Part shown: piece by piece, positions 45,374 through 52,245 of the stretch
How positions within the stretch are numbered: the first letter of the stretch is position 1
How the letters are laid out: every line of letters begins with the position of its first letter
From: Candidatus Zixiibacteriota bacterium
GTDB lineage: Bacteria; Zixibacteria; MSB-5A5; GN15; FEB-12
Length of the DNA: 64,000 nt
NCBI GenBank assembly: GCA_034003725.1
Contig: JAVEYB010000002.1
Coordinates: 62,001 to 126,000 of the forward strand
Direction: 5' to 3'
Notes under the pieces: model-generated
The model's database searches: none
Seen by the model: the letters and a program-made list of their open reading frames with translations, nothing else
What the model was told of the DNA's origin: nothing
Program-made: the position numbers and the translations under genes

Positions 45374-45714
45374 CCACCTTCTGATATAGATGTCGATGGC
45401 TCAAAAGCCAGCCATCAAGGCCGCGCAAATCAGGCCCACTGCGTGGGGCATCAACACGGATAAGTAGGAATTAGGACTCCATTAACCGAATTATGCATAT
45501 TCCGAAAACGGAGTTTAACACTCTAGGTGTATTAATCTTGTTTGTAAGATACTGAAATCTTCAATAAATTCAAGAGGGAATATGGGCCGCATTAGTCAAC
45601 GGGGGCCCTACACAATGAGTTTTACAAATGGGATTCGGAATCGCGGGCATAAAAAAGCGGCCCCGACAAAACTTTCCCCAAACGTTTGTGAAGTACGAGT
45701 ATCCGGGGATGGAC

Positions 45715-45847
45715 GGCACGCACGCGTGGGAGGTTGGGGGGAAGAAGGCGGACGAGCCGTACGCGGGCCGCTCCGTTGACATCCCACCCGGGACGGGTGG
45801 GCTACTCGGTTGACATCCCACTGGGGACGGGTGGGCTACTCGGTATG
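45715..45847 (+). repeat. Palindromic repeat block, copy 1
   Basis: The block reads GGCACGCACGCGTGGGAGG, then AAGGCGGACGAGCC, ACGCGGGCCGCTCC and two tandem 34-base units beginning GTTGACATCCCACCCGGGAC. The first unit contains the hairpin CCCACCCG-GGA-CGGGTGGG at 45783-45801. The second unit is slightly degraded (CCCACTGGGGACGGGTGGG). Confidence 0.8.
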
Positions 45848-45975
45848 GAGAGAAAGGCAACGTCAGCACCGGTCGCTCGCGATGCACCGATTGACGTGAC
45901 GGGAAGGGCGATCACGACCGGAGCTGACCTACACGGCGCAACAGTCGTGAGGGTTCGTGGTGCAGGGGGACGGGA

Positions 45976-46108
45976 GCCACGCACGGTGGGAAGTCGGCGG
46001 GTTCGAAGGCGGACGAGCCATACGCGGGCCGCTCCGTTGACATCCCACCCGGGACGGGTGGGCTACTCGGATGACATCCCACCCGGGACGGGTGGGCTAC
46101 TCGGTATG
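45976..46108 (+). repeat. Palindromic repeat block, copy 2
   Basis: A direct copy of the block at 45715, 261 bases downstream, again with two tandem 34-base units; here both hairpins are perfect CCCACCCGGGACGGGTGGG. About 90% of positions agree with copy 1 by eye. It ends 19 bases from the convergent NifU-like gene stop. Confidence 0.8.
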
Positions 46109-46126
46109 ATGACCAGTCGGGGGGCC

Positions 46127-46567
46127 TCACCCGCAGCCGCAGTTGCCGCAGGCTTTGATTTCCTCGGTCATGAGGTCGATGTTAAGCCGTGCGATGATTT
46201 CGATGCCATCGGGTGATGACGTGACCGAATGGACGGCGCAGTAGTCGGTCGGGCGGCCGGTCGTATGTCCCAGAGCCGCCTGTAATGTCTTCTGGACGGC
46301 AAACAGGTGTTTTGCATACAGAAACTGCCAGGTCTGTGAGCGCGTGGGGAAATGCGGCAGGAGATCGTCCGGTGTGGCGGAGAGGATGTCATCGGCCCGC
46401 CGGTTTTTAATCCACTTTTTGAGAAGGGACGGCTTTCCGACGGCGCCGCTGCAGGAATCCTTGGCGATCGCATAGTAGGTGACGCGATCGTTCTGGTCGA
46501 GCACCAAGCGGATATTTTCGGACACATCGTGGCACGGCATACAATCAGGATAATATGCACCGGCCAT
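46127..46567 (-). CDS. NifU/IscU-like cysteine-rich protein
   Basis: 146 residues. YAIAKDSCSGAVGKPSLLKK, ILSATPDDLLPHFP and FLYAKHLFAVQKTLQAALG resemble the NifU N-terminal scaffold fold, and the protein ends KACGNCGCG, a cysteine cluster that could bind iron-sulfur. Further cysteines lie in PDCMPCHDV and DYCAVHS. This may be an Fe-S cluster scaffold or carrier. The start is uncertain: ATG 46567 lacks a ribosome-binding site, and a TTGACA (46571-46576) with TATTAT (46550-46555) on the minus strand suggests transcription could begin almost at ATG 46540, giving a leaderless message. Confidence 0.5.
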   Translation of the reverse strand: MAGAYYPDCMPCHDVSENIRLVLDQNDRVTYYAIAKDSCSGAVGKPSLLKKWIKNRRADDILSATPDDLLPHFPTRSQTWQFLYAKHLFAVQKTLQAALGHTTGRPTDYCAVHSVTSSPDGIEIIARLNIDLMTEEIKACGNCGCG

Positions 46568-46791
46568 TTATGTCAAGGTTTTGGCGGGTGCGGCCGGGGA
46601 CGGATTTCGGTTGTCTGCGAGGGACTTGGCCGCTATATTCCCGGCTGAAGTTGGATTCCCCCGCCGCGGCGGGCGGGAATGGCACGGCTGCGGCGTGTCG
46701 TCAAAATGACAAGACTTCGTGCTGTTACAGTGAGATCGAGTGTCGCCGGCGGTCCGATGACGGTCCCGGCGTCAACAGAAAGGACAACCTG

Positions 46792-48003
46792 ATGCTGGGA
46801 TGGATGACTGAGCGCGTGCAACCGAACAAGTGGCCAATCGCGCCGCACGTACATTACCTCGAAGCTTCGATTATTCGTGAAATTCTCAAGTTTTCTTCAC
46901 AGCCGGGGGTTATCTCGTTCGCGGGCGGATTGCCGGCGGCCGAGCTTTTTCCGATCGATCTGCTGAAAAAAGTGGCGGTCGACGTTCTCGACAATTTTGG
47001 CGCCAAGGCTGTGCAGTACACGCTCACGCGCGGCGTGCCTGAGCTGACCCGGCTGTTGGCTGAACGGGCGACTGAGGCCGGGACGCCAACGACGCCGGAG
47101 AATCTGCTGGTGACATCGGGCTCCCAGCAGGGGATCGAGCTTATTGCGCGGGCGTTTCTGGATCCGGGGGACTATGTCCTGACGGAAAACCCGACTTACG
47201 TGGGGGCGTTGCAGGCGTTCAACTACTACCAGGCGCGGTATGTCACGATCGAGATGGACGACAAGGGGATGGTTGTCGACAAGATCGAGGATCGCATAAA
47301 GCAGTACAATCCCAAGCTTATCTATACGGTATCGAATTTCCAGAACCCAACCGGGATCACGATGTCCGAGGACCGTCGGATTCGGCTGTGCGAACTGGCG
47401 GCGCGGTACAACATTCCGGTGGTTGACGACAATCCGTACGGGGATATCCGGTTTGCCGGCAAAAACCTGCCGTCGCTCAAGTCGCTCGGCGGCGACGAAG
47501 TCATCACTCTTCGCACGTTCTCGAAGACGCTGACACCGGGTCTTCGGATCGGCTGGATGAATGGTCCCAAATGGATCTTGACTCAGTTCGAGAAAGTGAA
47601 GCAGTGCGCGGACCTGCATACCAGTACGTTCGGTCAGTATGTGGTTTATGAGTTCCTCAGGCAGGGTCTGTTGGAGCCGCATATAGAGAAGATCAAGGTC
47701 TGTTATCGTGAGAAGCGGGATGTCATGGTCCGGACGATGGAGGAGACGTTCCCCAAAGGCATAACGTGGACGCGGCCGGACGGCGGGTTGTTTTTGTGGG
47801 TTCGGCTGCCGGAGCGGCTCTCCGCGAAGGTATTGTTCCCGAAGGCGGTGGAGCAGAAGGTTGCGTACGTTTACGGTCAGCCGTTTTTCCCGCATGGCGA
47901 GGGAGAAAACACGCTTCGGTTGAACTTCTCGACCGCCTCAAAGGACGATATCGTAGAAGGGACCAAGCGGCTGGCGCGTCTGTTCCACGAAGTAATGGAT
48001 TGA
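46792..48003 (+). CDS. PLP-dependent aminotransferase, class I/II (LysN-like)
   Basis: 403 residues from ATG 46792 (AGAAAGGA upstream). FAGGLPAAELFP, LLVTSGSQQGIELIARAF, NFQNPTGITMS, VDDNPYGDIRF and the PLP-lysine motif TFSKTLTPGLRIGW are all typical of the PLP fold-type I family near 2-aminoadipate aminotransferase LysN and related broad-range enzymes. Substrate specificity cannot be fixed; a general aromatic or aminoadipate transaminase is likely. It is followed by a strong terminator. Confidence 0.88.
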   Translation: MLGWMTERVQPNKWPIAPHVHYLEASIIREILKFSSQPGVISFAGGLPAAELFPIDLLKKVAVDVLDNFGAKAVQYTLTRGVPELTRLLAERATEAGTPTTPENLLVTSGSQQGIELIARAFLDPGDYVLTENPTYVGALQAFNYYQARYVTIEMDDKGMVVDKIEDRIKQYNPKLIYTVSNFQNPTGITMSEDRRIRLCELAARYNIPVVDDNPYGDIRFAGKNLPSLKSLGGDEVITLRTFSKTLTPGLRIGWMNGPKWILTQFEKVKQCADLHTSTFGQYVVYEFLRQGLLEPHIEKIKVCYREKRDVMVRTMEETFPKGITWTRPDGGLFLWVRLPERLSAKVLFPKAVEQKVAYVYGQPFFPHGEGENTLRLNFSTASKDDIVEGTKRLARLFHEVMD

Positions 48004-48089: not shown

Positions 48090-48932
48090 ATGCGAACGAT
48101 CACCTTTCACAAGTACCACGCTCTCGAGAACGATTTCGCGGTGGTTGAGGCCGTTCGGCGGGGCACCAAAGCGGCGAATGCCACGATGGCGCGCTCGGTC
48201 TGCAATCGGAGGCGGGGGATAGGCGCCGACGGGGTGGTGCTGCTTTCGAAATCGTCCAAGGCGGACCGGCGGATTGACATTTACAATGCCGACGGTTCGT
48301 GGGCGGAGAAGTCCGGCAACGGGCTGCGGATCGCGGCCGTGCATCTCTGGTCGCAGGCGACGGGGCGGAGGGACTTCACGTTCGAGACGGCGACGAGTAT
48401 CGACCGGGTTACGCTGGGGAAGCGGACGCGGGAGGGGCTGGTGGCCACCGCCGAACTGGGATGTCCGGAGTTTGCGGCAGAGCGGGTGCCGGTGCGGTCC
48501 AGGACCCCGTACGTGATAAACGCGCCGCTGAAGATCGGGCCGCAGGCGCTGCCGATGACGTGTTTGTCGGTCGGCAATCCGCACGCCGTGCTGGTTGTGA
48601 AGGATTTCGAGTTCGATTGGATGACGCTCGGCAGTGAGATCGAACATTCCGCCCTGTTTCCCAACGGTACAAACGTGGAGTTCGTGCGCCCCGTGAGTCG
48701 GCGGAGAATAGAGGTGGCGGAGTGGGAGCGCGGCGCCGGTGCGACGGGGTCATCGGGGACGGGGGCGGCGGCGGCGGTTTGCGCGATGGTCATGCTGGGG
48801 CTGGCGGAACGGGAATGTGAGGTCGTGTTTCGTCCGGGGTCGCTTTGGGTGCGATGGCGAACAGAAGACGACGTGGTGGAGTTGACCGGACCGGTGCAGT
48901 TTATCGGCAGCGGGTCGTGCGCCGTACGATGA
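48090..48932 (+). CDS. Diaminopimelate epimerase homologue lacking both catalytic cysteines
   Basis: 280 residues with the two-lobed DapF fold and most substrate-binding motifs: HALENDF, RGIGADG, IYNADGS, SVGNPHAV and PNGTNVEFV. In DapF the catalytic pair are cysteines in NADGS..xxCGNG and in GAGETxACGSG; here Ser75 (EKSGNG) and Ser222 (TGSSGTG) replace them, and Ala218 replaces the glutamate before the second. Racemisation by the normal two-base thiol mechanism is therefore not expected. It may use serine as acid/base, act on another substrate, or be inactive. The gene starts the long plus-strand run; four bases separate it from the MFS gene. Confidence 0.88.
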   Translation: MRTITFHKYHALENDFAVVEAVRRGTKAANATMARSVCNRRRGIGADGVVLLSKSSKADRRIDIYNADGSWAEKSGNGLRIAAVHLWSQATGRRDFTFETATSIDRVTLGKRTREGLVATAELGCPEFAAERVPVRSRTPYVINAPLKIGPQALPMTCLSVGNPHAVLVVKDFEFDWMTLGSEIEHSALFPNGTNVEFVRPVSRRRIEVAEWERGAGATGSSGTGAAAAVCAMVMLGLAERECEVVFRPGSLWVRWRTEDDVVELTGPVQFIGSGSCAVR

Positions 48933-48936
48933 TGCC

Positions 48937-50268
48937 ATGAGTGTGCGGCAGATCAGAGAATCGTCGAGTCCGCCCGAGGGGCCGGTCTCGGTGGTCGGCC
49001 GGGTGTATCGGTCGGCGGCCGACTATGTGGCCACCGTTCGATTGTTTTCGCGGAATGCCCGTTTGTATCTGGCCGGTCTGTGCCTGACCGCGATCAATTT
49101 CCACATATTCATGCTGCTGCTGAATTTGTACCTCAAGGAGTTCGGATTCGGGGAGGGGGAAATCGGCCTCGTCAATTCCTCGCGGTCGATCGGCATGACG
49201 GTGATGGCGATACCGGCGGGTTTGTTTCTGAGCCGGGTGCGGCTGAAACCGGTGCTGATAGTCGCAGTTCTGATTTTCGGCGCGCTCAGTGTCGCGTTGT
49301 CCACGGTGACGGAGTTTGGGCAGATCGTGTTTTTCGGGGTGCTGTCGGGGATGGCATTTTCGATTTTTCGCGTGTCCAGCGGCCCGTTTTTCATGCGCAA
49401 TTCATCATCGAAGGAGCGGACGCACTTGTTTTCGTTTTCCTTCGCAATGTGGATACTGGCGGGGATGCTGGGATCGGTCGGGTCGGGTCAACTCGTAATC
49501 TGGATGACCGACCTGACGGGCGACGCGGTGCTCGGTTACCGATACACGCTTTATTTCGGGATCGGGCTGAGCATGTTGTCGCTGGCGCCGTTTGCGATGA
49601 TACGCTCCGCGAGGCCATCGCCCGAGGAAAAGCGACCGGGAGTAAGCAGGGCGCAGCTTCGCGCCCGCTGGCCGTTTTACGCCAAGGTATTCGTGGTAAA
49701 CTGCCTGGTCGGCATGGGGGCGGGGCTGTCGATCCCGTTTTTGAATCTCTATTTTCGAGACCGGTTCGGGCTTAATGCGGACACGATCGGAGCGTACTAT
49801 TTCGCCGTGATGACATCGATGTTTATCGGTACGCTGGCGGGGCCGTTGATAGCCAAGAAGCTCGGCCTGGTGCGGACGGTTGTGGTCACGCAGCTGCTTT
49901 CGATACCGTTTTTGCTCGTGCTGGCGTACACACACAACCTGACGGCGGCGTTTGTCTCGTATGTAATCCGCGGGGGGCTCATGAATCTGGGCACGCCGAT
50001 GTTCAACAACCTCTCCATGGAATTGTCGAGCACGGAGGAGCACTCCTTTGTCAATTCGCTGCTCATGGTGGCATGGACGTCGTCGTGGATGATCTCGACG
50101 GCAATCGGGGGTTCGATCATCGAGCACCAGGGGTACACGGTTTCGCTCAACGTTACAGTCGTGGCTTATGTCATCTCCACATTGGCGCTCTTTCTGTTTT
50201 TCAAGCGTTCCGAGCGGCGAAACAGCGGCTCCTCGGGTTGGCAGATTATCGACCCGACGCGCGCCTGA
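48937..50268 (+). CDS. MFS transporter
   Basis: 443 residues with twelve predicted helices, beginning at about 43 (LYLAGLCLTAINFHIFMLLL). The loop between helices 2 and 3 has the MFS-like FGFGEGEIGLVNSSRSIG, and the central cytoplasmic loop is basic (RSARPSPEEKRPGVSRAQLR). No substrate can be assigned; the family includes sugar-phosphate and drug exporters. It follows dapF by four bases. Confidence 0.85.
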   Translation: MSVRQIRESSSPPEGPVSVVGRVYRSAADYVATVRLFSRNARLYLAGLCLTAINFHIFMLLLNLYLKEFGFGEGEIGLVNSSRSIGMTVMAIPAGLFLSRVRLKPVLIVAVLIFGALSVALSTVTEFGQIVFFGVLSGMAFSIFRVSSGPFFMRNSSSKERTHLFSFSFAMWILAGMLGSVGSGQLVIWMTDLTGDAVLGYRYTLYFGIGLSMLSLAPFAMIRSARPSPEEKRPGVSRAQLRARWPFYAKVFVVNCLVGMGAGLSIPFLNLYFRDRFGLNADTIGAYYFAVMTSMFIGTLAGPLIAKKLGLVRTVVVTQLLSIPFLLVLAYTHNLTAAFVSYVIRGGLMNLGTPMFNNLSMELSSTEEHSFVNSLLMVAWTSSWMISTAIGGSIIEHQGYTVSLNVTVVAYVISTLALFLFFKRSERRNSGSSGWQIIDPTRA

Positions 50269-50418
50269 CGGGCGCCTGGCGGTCCAAAGGGTAAGTTGAG
50301 CGCACCTTCCGGCATGCGAGGGTTCGATTTGGTGACGGCAGCCTCCCGAAAGTTGGAGTTGCATCGGGCAGGGGATTGGCTGATATTCCAAGCCCGGCAA
50401 GAAACGATTAAACAGCAT

Positions 50419-52245
50419 ATGAACACGGCTATGGAGACAAGGGATAAATACAGGGCGCATTTCTCGGATGTACTGGCGCGCGCTTTTCGGGAAACCTACC
50501 CGGAAGCATACGCGGCCACCGGTCCCGAGCAGATGTTTTCGGAGGACTTCCTGTACGAGGCGCTGGAGAAGCCGCGGGATGCGTCGATGGGCCGTTTCGC
50601 CCTGCCGATATTCAAGTTTCTGAAAGTGCTACGGCAGAAGCCGGACGAGGTATCGTCGGTCGTGTCTGGGGCCGCCAACCGGCTGTTGGCAGAGGCCGGG
50701 GTGAAGGCGATTACGTGCGAGGGGGTCGGTGGATATATCAACGCCCGGATCGACCAGACGAGGCTGGCGGCGGAGACGATAGGTGACATTCTTTCTGCGG
50801 GGAGGTCGTACGGGGGCAGTTCGATCGGCGCGGGCAAAACGCAACTGGTGGAGTATTCCTCGCCGAATATCGCCAAGCCGTTCGGCATAGGGCACCTTCG
50901 GACGACGGTGATCGGGAACTCGCTTCGTCGCATTTACAGGAAGCAGGGTTACGAGGTCGTCGGGATCAACTATCCGGGGGACTGGGGTACCCAGTTCGGG
51001 AAGATGATCGTGGCGTACCGGAGGTGGGGCACCGCTGAGACGCTGGCAGGAGACTCGGTCAGAAACCTCCTTGACCTTTATGTGCGATTTCATGAGGAGG
51101 CGGGGGCGAATGAGTCGCTCAACGAGGATGCCCGCCAGGCATTCCGGGCGCTGGAGGAAGGCGACGCGGAAGCGGTGCGGCTCTGGGAGGAGTTCAAGAA
51201 GATCTCGTTTGCGGAGTTCAACAGAGTCTACAGCAGTCTGGGGATCGAGTTCGATCTCGTGATCGGGGAGTCGTTTTTCAACGACAAGATGGAAGGGGTG
51301 ATCGCACGACTCGAGCGGGCCGGGCTCACCAGAATGTCACAGGGGGCGTTGATCGTTGATTTGGAGCCGTACGGATTGCCGCCGGCACTGCTGAAGAAGG
51401 CCGACGGTGCGACGTTATATATGACGCGGGACCTGGCCGGGTTGATCTGGCGGTGGGAGAAGTATCACTTTCACGAATCGTTGTATGTCGTTGGGGCCGC
51501 GCAGGCTGATCATTTCAGGCAGGCATTAAAGGTGATCGCATTGCTGGAGGATGCCGAGGGTATGCCGTCGGAGGACCGCATGACCGGTCGGGTGCATCAT
51601 ATCGAGTTTGGGTGGGTCCGATTTGACGGGCGGTCGATGTCGACCCGGCGCGGCAACCTCGTCTTTCTCGATGATGTTATCGCCCAGGCGGTGTCGCTGG
51701 CTCGGGAGCGGATTCGGGAGAAGAACCCCGAACTGGCGGAGATTGACCGGACGGCGCAGATGATCGGTACGGGTGCAGTCATATTCGGGCAGCTGTCGGC
51801 CCGTCGGCAGCGCGATATCGATTTCAACTGGGATGAAGTGCTGAACTTTGAGGGGGAAACCGGGCCGTATCTCCAGTACACGCATGCGCGTTTGTGCTCG
51901 TTGCTGCGCAAGTACGGCAAGGAAGTACCGGATCAGATTGATTACAGCCTGCTCGGCAGTGACGAGGAGCAGCGGGTGATCGAACTGCTCGCCGATTTTC
52001 CGGCGGCCGTTGCGGATGCCGCCCGCACGTACGAGCCGTTTGTGATCACTACATACTTGTTGAAACTCGCCTCGTCGTACAATAAGGTATACCAGCGGCG
52101 GGACGAAAGCGGGCGTATCGTGCGGATTCTCGATGACGAGGATGGGCAGGGAACCACTGCCCGGGCGGCGCTGGTTACAGCGGTACAAACCGTGTTGAAG
52201 GAAGGACTTCACCTGCTTGGGTTGCAGGCTCCCGAGGAGATGTAG
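50419..52245 (+). CDS. argS: Arginyl-tRNA synthetase
   Basis: 608 residues from ATG 50419; the open frame reaches back to 50296 without a good site. The N-terminal Add-1 domain (about 1-120) is followed by the class I signature EYSSPNIAKPFGIGHLRTT, in which the HIGH motif is GIGH (first histidine replaced by glycine, as seen in some ArgRS), and GDWGTQFGKMI. The KMSKS-like MSTRRGN is typical of ArgRS, and the DALR anticodon-binding domain is at the end. It charges tRNA-Arg and is followed immediately by aroF. Confidence 0.92.
   Translation: MNTAMETRDKYRAHFSDVLARAFRETYPEAYAATGPEQMFSEDFLYEALEKPRDASMGRFALPIFKFLKVLRQKPDEVSSVVSGAANRLLAEAGVKAITCEGVGGYINARIDQTRLAAETIGDILSAGRSYGGSSIGAGKTQLVEYSSPNIAKPFGIGHLRTTVIGNSLRRIYRKQGYEVVGINYPGDWGTQFGKMIVAYRRWGTAETLAGDSVRNLLDLYVRFHEEAGANESLNEDARQAFRALEEGDAEAVRLWEEFKKISFAEFNRVYSSLGIEFDLVIGESFFNDKMEGVIARLERAGLTRMSQGALIVDLEPYGLPPALLKKADGATLYMTRDLAGLIWRWEKYHFHESLYVVGAAQADHFRQALKVIALLEDAEGMPSEDRMTGRVHHIEFGWVRFDGRSMSTRRGNLVFLDDVIAQAVSLARERIREKNPELAEIDRTAQMIGTGAVIFGQLSARRQRDIDFNWDEVLNFEGETGPYLQYTHARLCSLLRKYGKEVPDQIDYSLLGSDEEQRVIELLADFPAAVADAARTYEPFVITTYLLKLASSYNKVYQRRDESGRIVRILDDEDGQGTTARAALVTAVQTVLKEGLHLLGLQAPEEM

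What the first reader, a model, noticed from the sequence alone, without database searches (positions are those of the whole stretch)
48090..48932. DapF homologue with serines replacing both catalytic cysteines
Ser75 (EKSGNG) and Ser222 (TGSSGTG) stand where the acid/base cysteine pair of diaminopimelate epimerase should be, and Ala218 replaces the neighbouring glutamate. The substrate-binding asparagines are nevertheless kept. Either this subfamily works by a different mechanism on another amino acid, or it has lost catalysis. It heads a long housekeeping run that includes argS and the aro genes, and the host needs a meso-DAP source if it makes DAP peptidoglycan.
Basis: partly seen in the sequence, partly recalled or inferred. 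Interest (0 to 1): 0.65.

Follow-up and report, generated by a model that had tools for sequence, protein, structure and literature searches.

The report
Epimerase with serines replacing catalytic cysteines
An enzyme that many bacteria need to build their cell wall has, in this lineage and in several other phyla, swapped both of its supposedly indispensable cysteines for serines yet looks fully functional, which challenges the textbook mechanism and can be tested directly.

Summary
Window 48090-48932 (+) encodes a 280-aa DapF-family protein with Ser75 and Ser222 where the catalytic Cys pair belongs. 'Ala218 replacing the glutamate' is a misreading: the conserved Glu (E213) is kept and 218 is a variable position.

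It is the only DapF gene in this 99.5%-complete Zixibacteria genome. Relatives form a natural series: Cys/Cys, Cys/Ser, Ser/Cys and Ser/Ser, with Cys reappearing inside Ser/Ser clades. An aminotransferase-dapF gene order is shared by Cys/Cys and Ser/Ser members. Every ligand residue, including the site holding the distal end of DAP, is invariant in 62 Ser/Ser sequences, dN/dS is about 0.03-0.19, and the AlphaFold model (pLDDT 95) matches inhibitor-bound DapF. Ser/Ser is the sole DapF in 13 sampled genomes of other phyla, one with dapA-dapB-dapL.

Best reading: a working DapF-type epimerase using a Ser/Ser acid-base pair. Decay and glutamate-racemase rivals are weak.

Unexpected: the window genome lacks recognisable dapA, dapB, ddh and lysA, and none of 132 Zixibacteria genomes has dapB above cut-off, although MurE (DNPR motif) and MurI are present. 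The substrate's source, and whether it is DAP or an analogue such as lanthionine, is open. Activity is not shown.

The parts
48090..48932 (+). DapF-family epimerase gene, Ser/Ser variant (280 aa)
   Evidence: TIGR00652 204.4 bits (cut-off 114.65), PF01678 147.1 bits; only PF01678 gene in the genome; AlphaFold pLDDT 94.9, best PDB match 9mro TM 0.91
48312..48314 (+). Ser75 codon (TCC), at the place of the first catalytic Cys (Hi Cys73 / Anabaena Cys75); N-terminal end of helix 76-89 in the model
48753..48755 (+). Ser222 codon (TCG), at the place of the second catalytic Cys (Hi Cys217 / Anabaena Cys224); N-terminal end of helix 223-235 in the model
48285..48287 (+). Asn66 codon, distal-site ligand residue (Anabaena Asn66), invariant
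48726..48731 (+).
46555..48003 (+). AADAT/LysN-type PLP aminotransferase ORF (the homologous part starts near codon 79; true start uncertain); upstream neighbour conserved in most Zixibacteria
   Evidence: PF00155 132 bits; PDB matches to aminoadipate/multi-substrate aminotransferases; adjacent in 61 of 69 loci with enough upstream sequence
48937..50268 (+). MFS transporter, downstream neighbour in families f1, f2, f4, f5, f18
   Evidence: PF07690 112.8 bits; synteny
50296..52245 (+). argS, syntenic anchor next to dapF across the phylum
   Evidence: TIGR00456 403.6 bits; synteny

Best explanation
The gene encodes a working DapF-type, cofactor-independent epimerase in which the thiol/thiolate acid-base pair has been replaced by two serine hydroxyls. 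It inverts the alpha-carbon of a long substrate with an amino acid at each end by two-sided (1,1) proton transfer. One Ser removes the proton from one face and the other gives one back on the opposite face. The proximal carboxylate is held by the N-termini of two opposed helices and the distal amino-acid end by N66, N163, N195, E213 and R214. In other phyla the substrate is most likely LL-DAP. In Zixibacteria it is LL-DAP or a close analogue such as LL-lanthionine, and the product is used by a MurE that carries the DNPR motif. Shown: the sequence, copy number, conservation, synteny, predicted fold and pathway gene content. Inferred: that it is catalytically active, the roles of the two Ser, the substrate and the link to MurE.
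For: It is the only PF01678 gene in a 99.5%-complete genome; 116 of 132 Zixibacteria genomes carry the family, nearly all at one locus. States at the two catalytic positions run C/C, C/S, S/C, S/S, with Cys reappearing inside Ser/Ser clades (G030 S/C; G081/L114 C/S). The aminotransferase-dapF gene order is shared by C/C and S/S members, so they are orthologous by position. All ligand-shell positions examined are invariant or nearly so in 62 S/S sequences and match the DAP contacts described for Anabaena DapF (PMC12039745). dN/dS is about 0.03-0.19 in S/S pairs, like C/S pairs. The model has pLDDT 94.9 and its best match is inhibitor-bound DapF 9mro. S/S is the sole DapF in 13 genomes of other phyla, 7 of them with dapB. 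One of these, Methylomirabilota G142, has dapA (377.7 bits), dapB and dapL (617 bits, cut-off 593) side by side, so it should make LL-DAP and has only the S/S protein to epimerise it. A Ser/Cys 4-hydroxyproline epimerase of the related proline racemase fold is active with Ser as one base (PMC4113996).
Against: Cys-to-Ser mutants of PddB, and as cited there of M. tuberculosis DapF, keep under 0.1% activity (PMC8225329), so a Ser/Ser pair would need tuning that is not identified; Lys74 recurs in two Ser/Ser groups but not in all. No characterised Ser/Ser epimerase was found in the papers searched. In the window's genome dapA, dapB, ddh and lysA are not detectable, so no de novo source of LL-DAP is visible. 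Six of the 14 other-phylum genomes also lacked dapB. Ddh was not searched in the dapB-positive genomes and could bypass DapF there. No activity data exist.
Confidence: 0.66

Rival explanations
1. The protein is a racemase or epimerase for a different amino acid (lysine, histidine, ornithine or other), recruited after the DAP pathway was lost, as happened with the DapF homologue HisR of Fusobacterium nucleatum.
For: The window genome lacks detectable dapA, dapB, ddh and lysA, and no Zixibacteria genome has dapB above cut-off. F. nucleatum also lacks the DAP pathway and its DapF homologue is a histidine racemase (PMC11602996). The neighbour is an aminoadipate-type aminotransferase, as in the alternative lysine pathway.
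Against: The distal-site residues that read the second amino-acid end of DAP (N66, N163, N195, E213, R214) are invariant in all 62 Ser/Ser Zixibacteria sequences. CntK, a histidine racemase, aligns at only 12% identity with TM about 0.7, against 34% and 0.91 for DapF 9mro. MurE keeps the DNPR motif and GKGxE. The same Ser/Ser state occurs in genomes with the DAP pathway.
Confidence: 0.17
2. The protein has lost catalysis and survives as a binding or regulatory protein (E. coli DapF is known to bind RppH).
For: Both catalytic Cys are gone, and Cys-to-Ser mutants of relatives are almost dead (PMC8225329).
Against: The active-site shell is invariant over sequences only about 33-69% identical to the window protein. 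Ser and Cys interchange repeatedly on the tree. In another phylum the Ser/Ser gene is the sole DapF of a genome with dapA-dapB-dapL. dN/dS is about 0.03-0.19.
Confidence: 0.1
3. The protein supplies D-glutamate, like the bifunctional DapF/glutamate racemase of Chlamydia trachomatis.
For: DapF can do this in Chlamydia (PMC5885031).
Against: A full MurI is present in the window's genome (238.7 bits, cut-off 146.65) and over cut-off in 111 of 132 Zixibacteria genomes. The protein scores 75.6 bits against the bifunctional model NF038284, cut-off 350.
Confidence: 0.03
4. A narrower form of the best explanation: the true substrate in Zixibacteria is specifically LL-lanthionine (cysteine-derived), giving meso-lanthionine peptidoglycan without any DAP pathway.
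For: No dapA in the own genome and no dapB in the phylum; DNPR-type MurE; Gly48 at the position where Gly (not Gln44) goes with lanthionine tolerance in Anabaena and Arabidopsis DapF (PMC12039745).
Against: Gly48 is common to most DapFs, so it is not specific. No lanthionine synthase was searched for. The F. nucleatum DapF homologue has very low lanthionine turnover (PMC11602996). The phylum might get DAP by an unrecognised route or by salvage.
Confidence: 0.15

Closest known systems
Diaminopimelate epimerase DapF (TIGR00652, PF01678; 9mro Anabaena, 3ejx Arabidopsis, 1gqz H. influenzae)
   Same: Fold, length, two-domain pseudo-symmetry, all substrate-binding residues, helix N-termini at both catalytic positions
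   Different: Both catalytic Cys are Ser; the window's genome lacks detectable dapA, dapB and lysA
Ser/Cys 4-hydroxyproline 2-epimerase and Ser/Thr trans-3-hydroxyproline dehydratase of the proline racemase superfamily (PMC4113996)
   Same: Related fold; Ser serves as acid-base catalyst in an active enzyme
   Different: Only one of the two positions is Ser in the epimerase; substrate is hydroxyproline; sequence identity about 15%
Histidine racemase HisR of Fusobacterium nucleatum (PMC11602996)
   Same: DapF homologue in an organism without the DAP pathway
   Different: Keeps Cys67/Cys209; specific for histidine
H. influenzae DapF C73S and C217S mutants (2q9h, 2q9j)
   Same: Same fold with Ser at one catalytic position
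   Different: Laboratory single mutants, not a natural lineage; single Cys-to-Ser mutants of relatives are nearly inactive
LysN / AADAT aminotransferases (2egy, 1x0m)
   Same: Family of the neighbouring gene product
   Different: Its substrate in Zixibacteria is unknown; it could make the epimerase substrate, as DapL does elsewhere (inference)

Membership tests
DapF (diaminopimelate epimerase) | Score above the curated TIGR00652 equivalog cut-off | tested here: met
   204.4 vs 114.65 bits
DapF (diaminopimelate epimerase) | DapF fold with two PF01678 halves | tested here: met
   (predicted structure)
DapF (diaminopimelate epimerase) | Catalytic Cys/Cys thiol-thiolate pair | tested here: not met
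   Ser75/Ser222; so it is not filed as a canonical DapF but as a Ser/Ser variant of the sequence family
DapF (diaminopimelate epimerase) | Proximal and distal DAP-binding residues (N, N, N, N, N, E, R, T) | tested here: met
   N14, N66, N77, N163, N195, E213, R214, T224 all kept
DapF (diaminopimelate epimerase) | Host has an LL-DAP pathway (dapA, dapB, then dapL or dapD/C/E) | tested here: not met
   No dapA, no dapB in own genome, 0 of 132 genomes with dapB over cut-off; met in Methylomirabilota G142 with a Ser/Ser DapF
DapF (diaminopimelate epimerase) | Epimerises LL-DAP | not testable with these tools
   No assay possible
Bifunctional DapF/glutamate racemase (NF038284) | Score above model cut-off; no MurI in host | tested here: not met
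   75.6 vs 350 bits; MurI present
Histidine racemase (CntK/HisR type) | Closest match by sequence or fold | tested here: not met
   CntK 6jis at rank 35, 12% identity; DapF at rank 1
Proline racemase superfamily with Ser | Sequence membership | tested here: not met
   PF01678 is the only Pfam family matched; structures match at about 15% identity only

The most novel reading that the evidence does not exclude
A whole lineage of cell-wall epimerases does 1,1-proton transfer with a Ser/Ser pair and no thiol, and Zixibacteria as a phylum make the diamino acid of their peptidoglycan (DAP or a thioether analogue) by a route without DapA and DapB, in which an AADAT-type aminotransferase and this epimerase are the last two steps.
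Probability: 0.28. Interest if true: 0.85.

Novelty: new variant of a known kind. Interest (0 to 1): 0.62.

Why it matters
DapF is a standard example of cysteine thiolate/thiol chemistry and an antibiotic target whose covalent inhibitors attack those cysteines. A natural, widespread, single-copy Ser/Ser version would show that the thiols are not essential, and gives a ready series (C/C, C/S, S/C, S/S orthologues) to measure how a hydroxyl can do the job. Separately, the phylum-wide lack of dapB despite DapF and peptidoglycan genes points to an unknown or replaced source of the peptidoglycan diamino acid in an uncultured phylum.

Tried and rejected
A second intact dapF in the assembly: none. 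Glutamate racemase role: disfavoured because MurI is present. Pseudogene or sequencing error: rejected by conservation in 62 sequences. LysA candidates: the 389-aa ORF (C1:4989-6158) sits between a SpeD-like and a spermidine-synthase-like ORF (my reading of the sequences) and is below the LysA cut-off; the second (C1:616942) is weaker and next to an ATP-grasp gene. DapL candidates in the own genome all fall below cut-off. Weak dapB-like hits in four Zixibacteria genomes are far below cut-off. A strict partner for the serines: Lys74 (EKS) recurs in two Ser/Ser groups but is absent in f5, Acidobacteria and Aminicenantes, so it is only a lead. dap genes next to the Ser/Ser dapF in other phyla: none recognised among the ORFs listed; found instead at the dapB loci. 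Literature on Zixibacteria cell walls or lysine synthesis and on Acidobacteria peptidoglycan: nothing usable.

Full report
What is there. The ORF at 48090-48932 (+) encodes 280 aa, matches PF01678 twice and the DapF equivalog TIGR00652 at 204.4 bits against a cut-off of 114.65. Its best PDB relatives are all DapF. Ser75 and Ser222 sit exactly at the two catalytic cysteines. The conserved glutamate is not lost: E213 and R214 are there.

Copy number. The window lies in a 3.73-Mb genome, 99.5% complete, whose only PF01678 gene is this one. The nearest named records are Zixibacteria (L113, L114). In 132 genomes of the phylum, 116 carry the family, almost always at a single locus.

A natural series. 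Reading the two positions across the phylum gives Ser/Ser in nearly all of the window's order (families f1-f4) and in f5, Cys/Ser in f9, f10, f12, f13 and f14, Ser/Cys in f7, and Cys/Cys in f6, f8, f15 and f16. Inside the Ser/Ser order, G030 is Ser/Cys and G081/L114 is Cys/Ser. On a maximum-likelihood tree (quick search, SH-aLRT only, midpoint root) the Ser/Ser label needs 4 changes and all states together 9. The Ser codons are almost all TCN and vary at the third base. Gene order aminotransferase-dapF is seen in 61 of 69 loci with enough upstream sequence, including 7 of 9 Cys/Cys ones, and argS follows in most loci long enough to show it. So the Cys and Ser forms are the same gene by position.

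Other phyla. The genome-collection search and a reading of the sites show Ser/Ser DapF also in Acidobacteria (including Blastocatellia) and HR10, Aminicenantes, Sulfurihydrogenibium, Methylomirabilota, Rokubacteria and Chloroflexi, and Cys/Ser in Poribacteria. In each of those 14 genomes this is the only PF01678 locus above cut-off. dapB is present in 8 of the 14. In Methylomirabilota G142 it stands between a dapA of 377.7 bits and a DapL of 617 bits, above the strict 593-bit cut-off. That genome should therefore make LL-DAP and, by what is visible, has only the Ser/Ser protein to make meso-DAP. Two Acidobacteria genomes have a deacylase, dapB and dapA cluster, one with an aspartokinase end upstream. 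Ddh was not searched in these genomes.

Active site. Using the contacts listed for Anabaena DapF (PMC12039745), every ligand residue is conserved: N14, N66, G76, N77, N163, N195, E213, R214, G223 and T224. All are invariant in 62 Ser/Ser Zixibacteria sequences except one T224S. The five that hold the distal amino-acid end argue for a substrate with two amino-acid ends. AlphaFold2 gives pLDDT 94.9, with both serines at helix N-termini, and the closest solved structure is the inhibitor-bound DapF 9mro (TM 0.91, 2.1 A). dN/dS of Ser/Ser pairs is about 0.03-0.19 where estimable. Together these make decay an unlikely explanation.

Why it is surprising. Cys-to-Ser mutants of PddB, and as cited there of M. 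tuberculosis DapF, keep less than 0.1% activity (PMC8225329), and current papers describe the class as depending on a Cys thiolate (PMC12039745). A precedent for Ser as one of the two bases exists in the proline racemase superfamily (PMC4113996). No characterised Ser/Ser example was found. How the serines are activated is not known. Lys74, just before Ser75, recurs in two Ser/Ser groups but is not universal.

The pathway puzzle. In the window's genome dapA, dapB, ddh and a LysA above cut-off are not detectable. The better LysA-like protein lies between polyamine genes. dapB is above cut-off in none of 132 Zixibacteria genomes, including Cys/Cys members and many rated at least 98% complete, while the control genomes rang as expected. 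Peptidoglycan synthesis is nevertheless present: MurE at 486 bits with the DNPR motif and GKGxE and MurI at 238.7 bits. DNPR also occurs in the Thermotoga LD-lysine MurE (from my own knowledge; 4bub is among the matches), so it does not settle the substrate. The aminotransferase beside dapF belongs to the AADAT/LysN group. It could make the epimerase substrate, as DapL does, or serve aminoadipate-type lysine synthesis. Candidates for the substrate are LL-DAP from salvage or an unrecognised route, and LL-lanthionine, which some DapFs accept (PMC12039745). Fusobacterium is the cautionary case: without a DAP pathway, its DapF homologue turned out to be a histidine racemase (PMC11602996).

Verdict. 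The protein is best described as a Ser/Ser variant of the DapF family, most likely an active epimerase. It is not filed as a canonical DapF because the catalytic Cys pair was tested and is absent. Activity, substrate in Zixibacteria and the activation of the serines remain to be shown.

Noticed in passing
Zixibacteria genomes G000-G131: Phylum-wide absence of dapB above cut-off (0 of 132) although DapF and MurI are widespread and MurE is present in the own genome; dapA also absent in the window's genome.
   Followed up: partly
G119-G122 (family f17): Four genomes at 92-94% completeness have no DapF match at all but do have a MurI match; a possible clade-wide loss of DapF.
   Followed up: no
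L041 and L042 (G030): One genome carries two diverged dapF copies, both Ser/Cys, inside the Ser/Ser clade.
   Followed up: no
window 46127-46567 (-): Small 146-aa ORF with Cys pairs, no Pfam match, conserved divergently upstream of the aminotransferase in several relatives (34-73% identity).
   Followed up: partly
L214:3768-9169 (own genome C1, about 615.8-621.2 kb): Cluster of an ATP-grasp ligase, a LysA-like decarboxylase, a RimK-like ATP-grasp and an acetyltransferase; looks like an amino-acid or peptide-modifying locus.
   Followed up: partly
window about 45570-46216 and L212:14107-14910: Similar G+C-rich ORF texts (PPVPGG and alike) at two distant places suggest a dispersed intergenic repeat.
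   Followed up: no
G133, G134, G137 (Aminicenantes): Three Aminicenantes genomes also have a lone Ser/Ser DapF and no dapB match, the same combination as Zixibacteria.
   Followed up: no
L024 and L071 (G035, G043): dapF is split into two ORFs by a frameshift in these two MAGs; probably assembly error.
   Followed up: no
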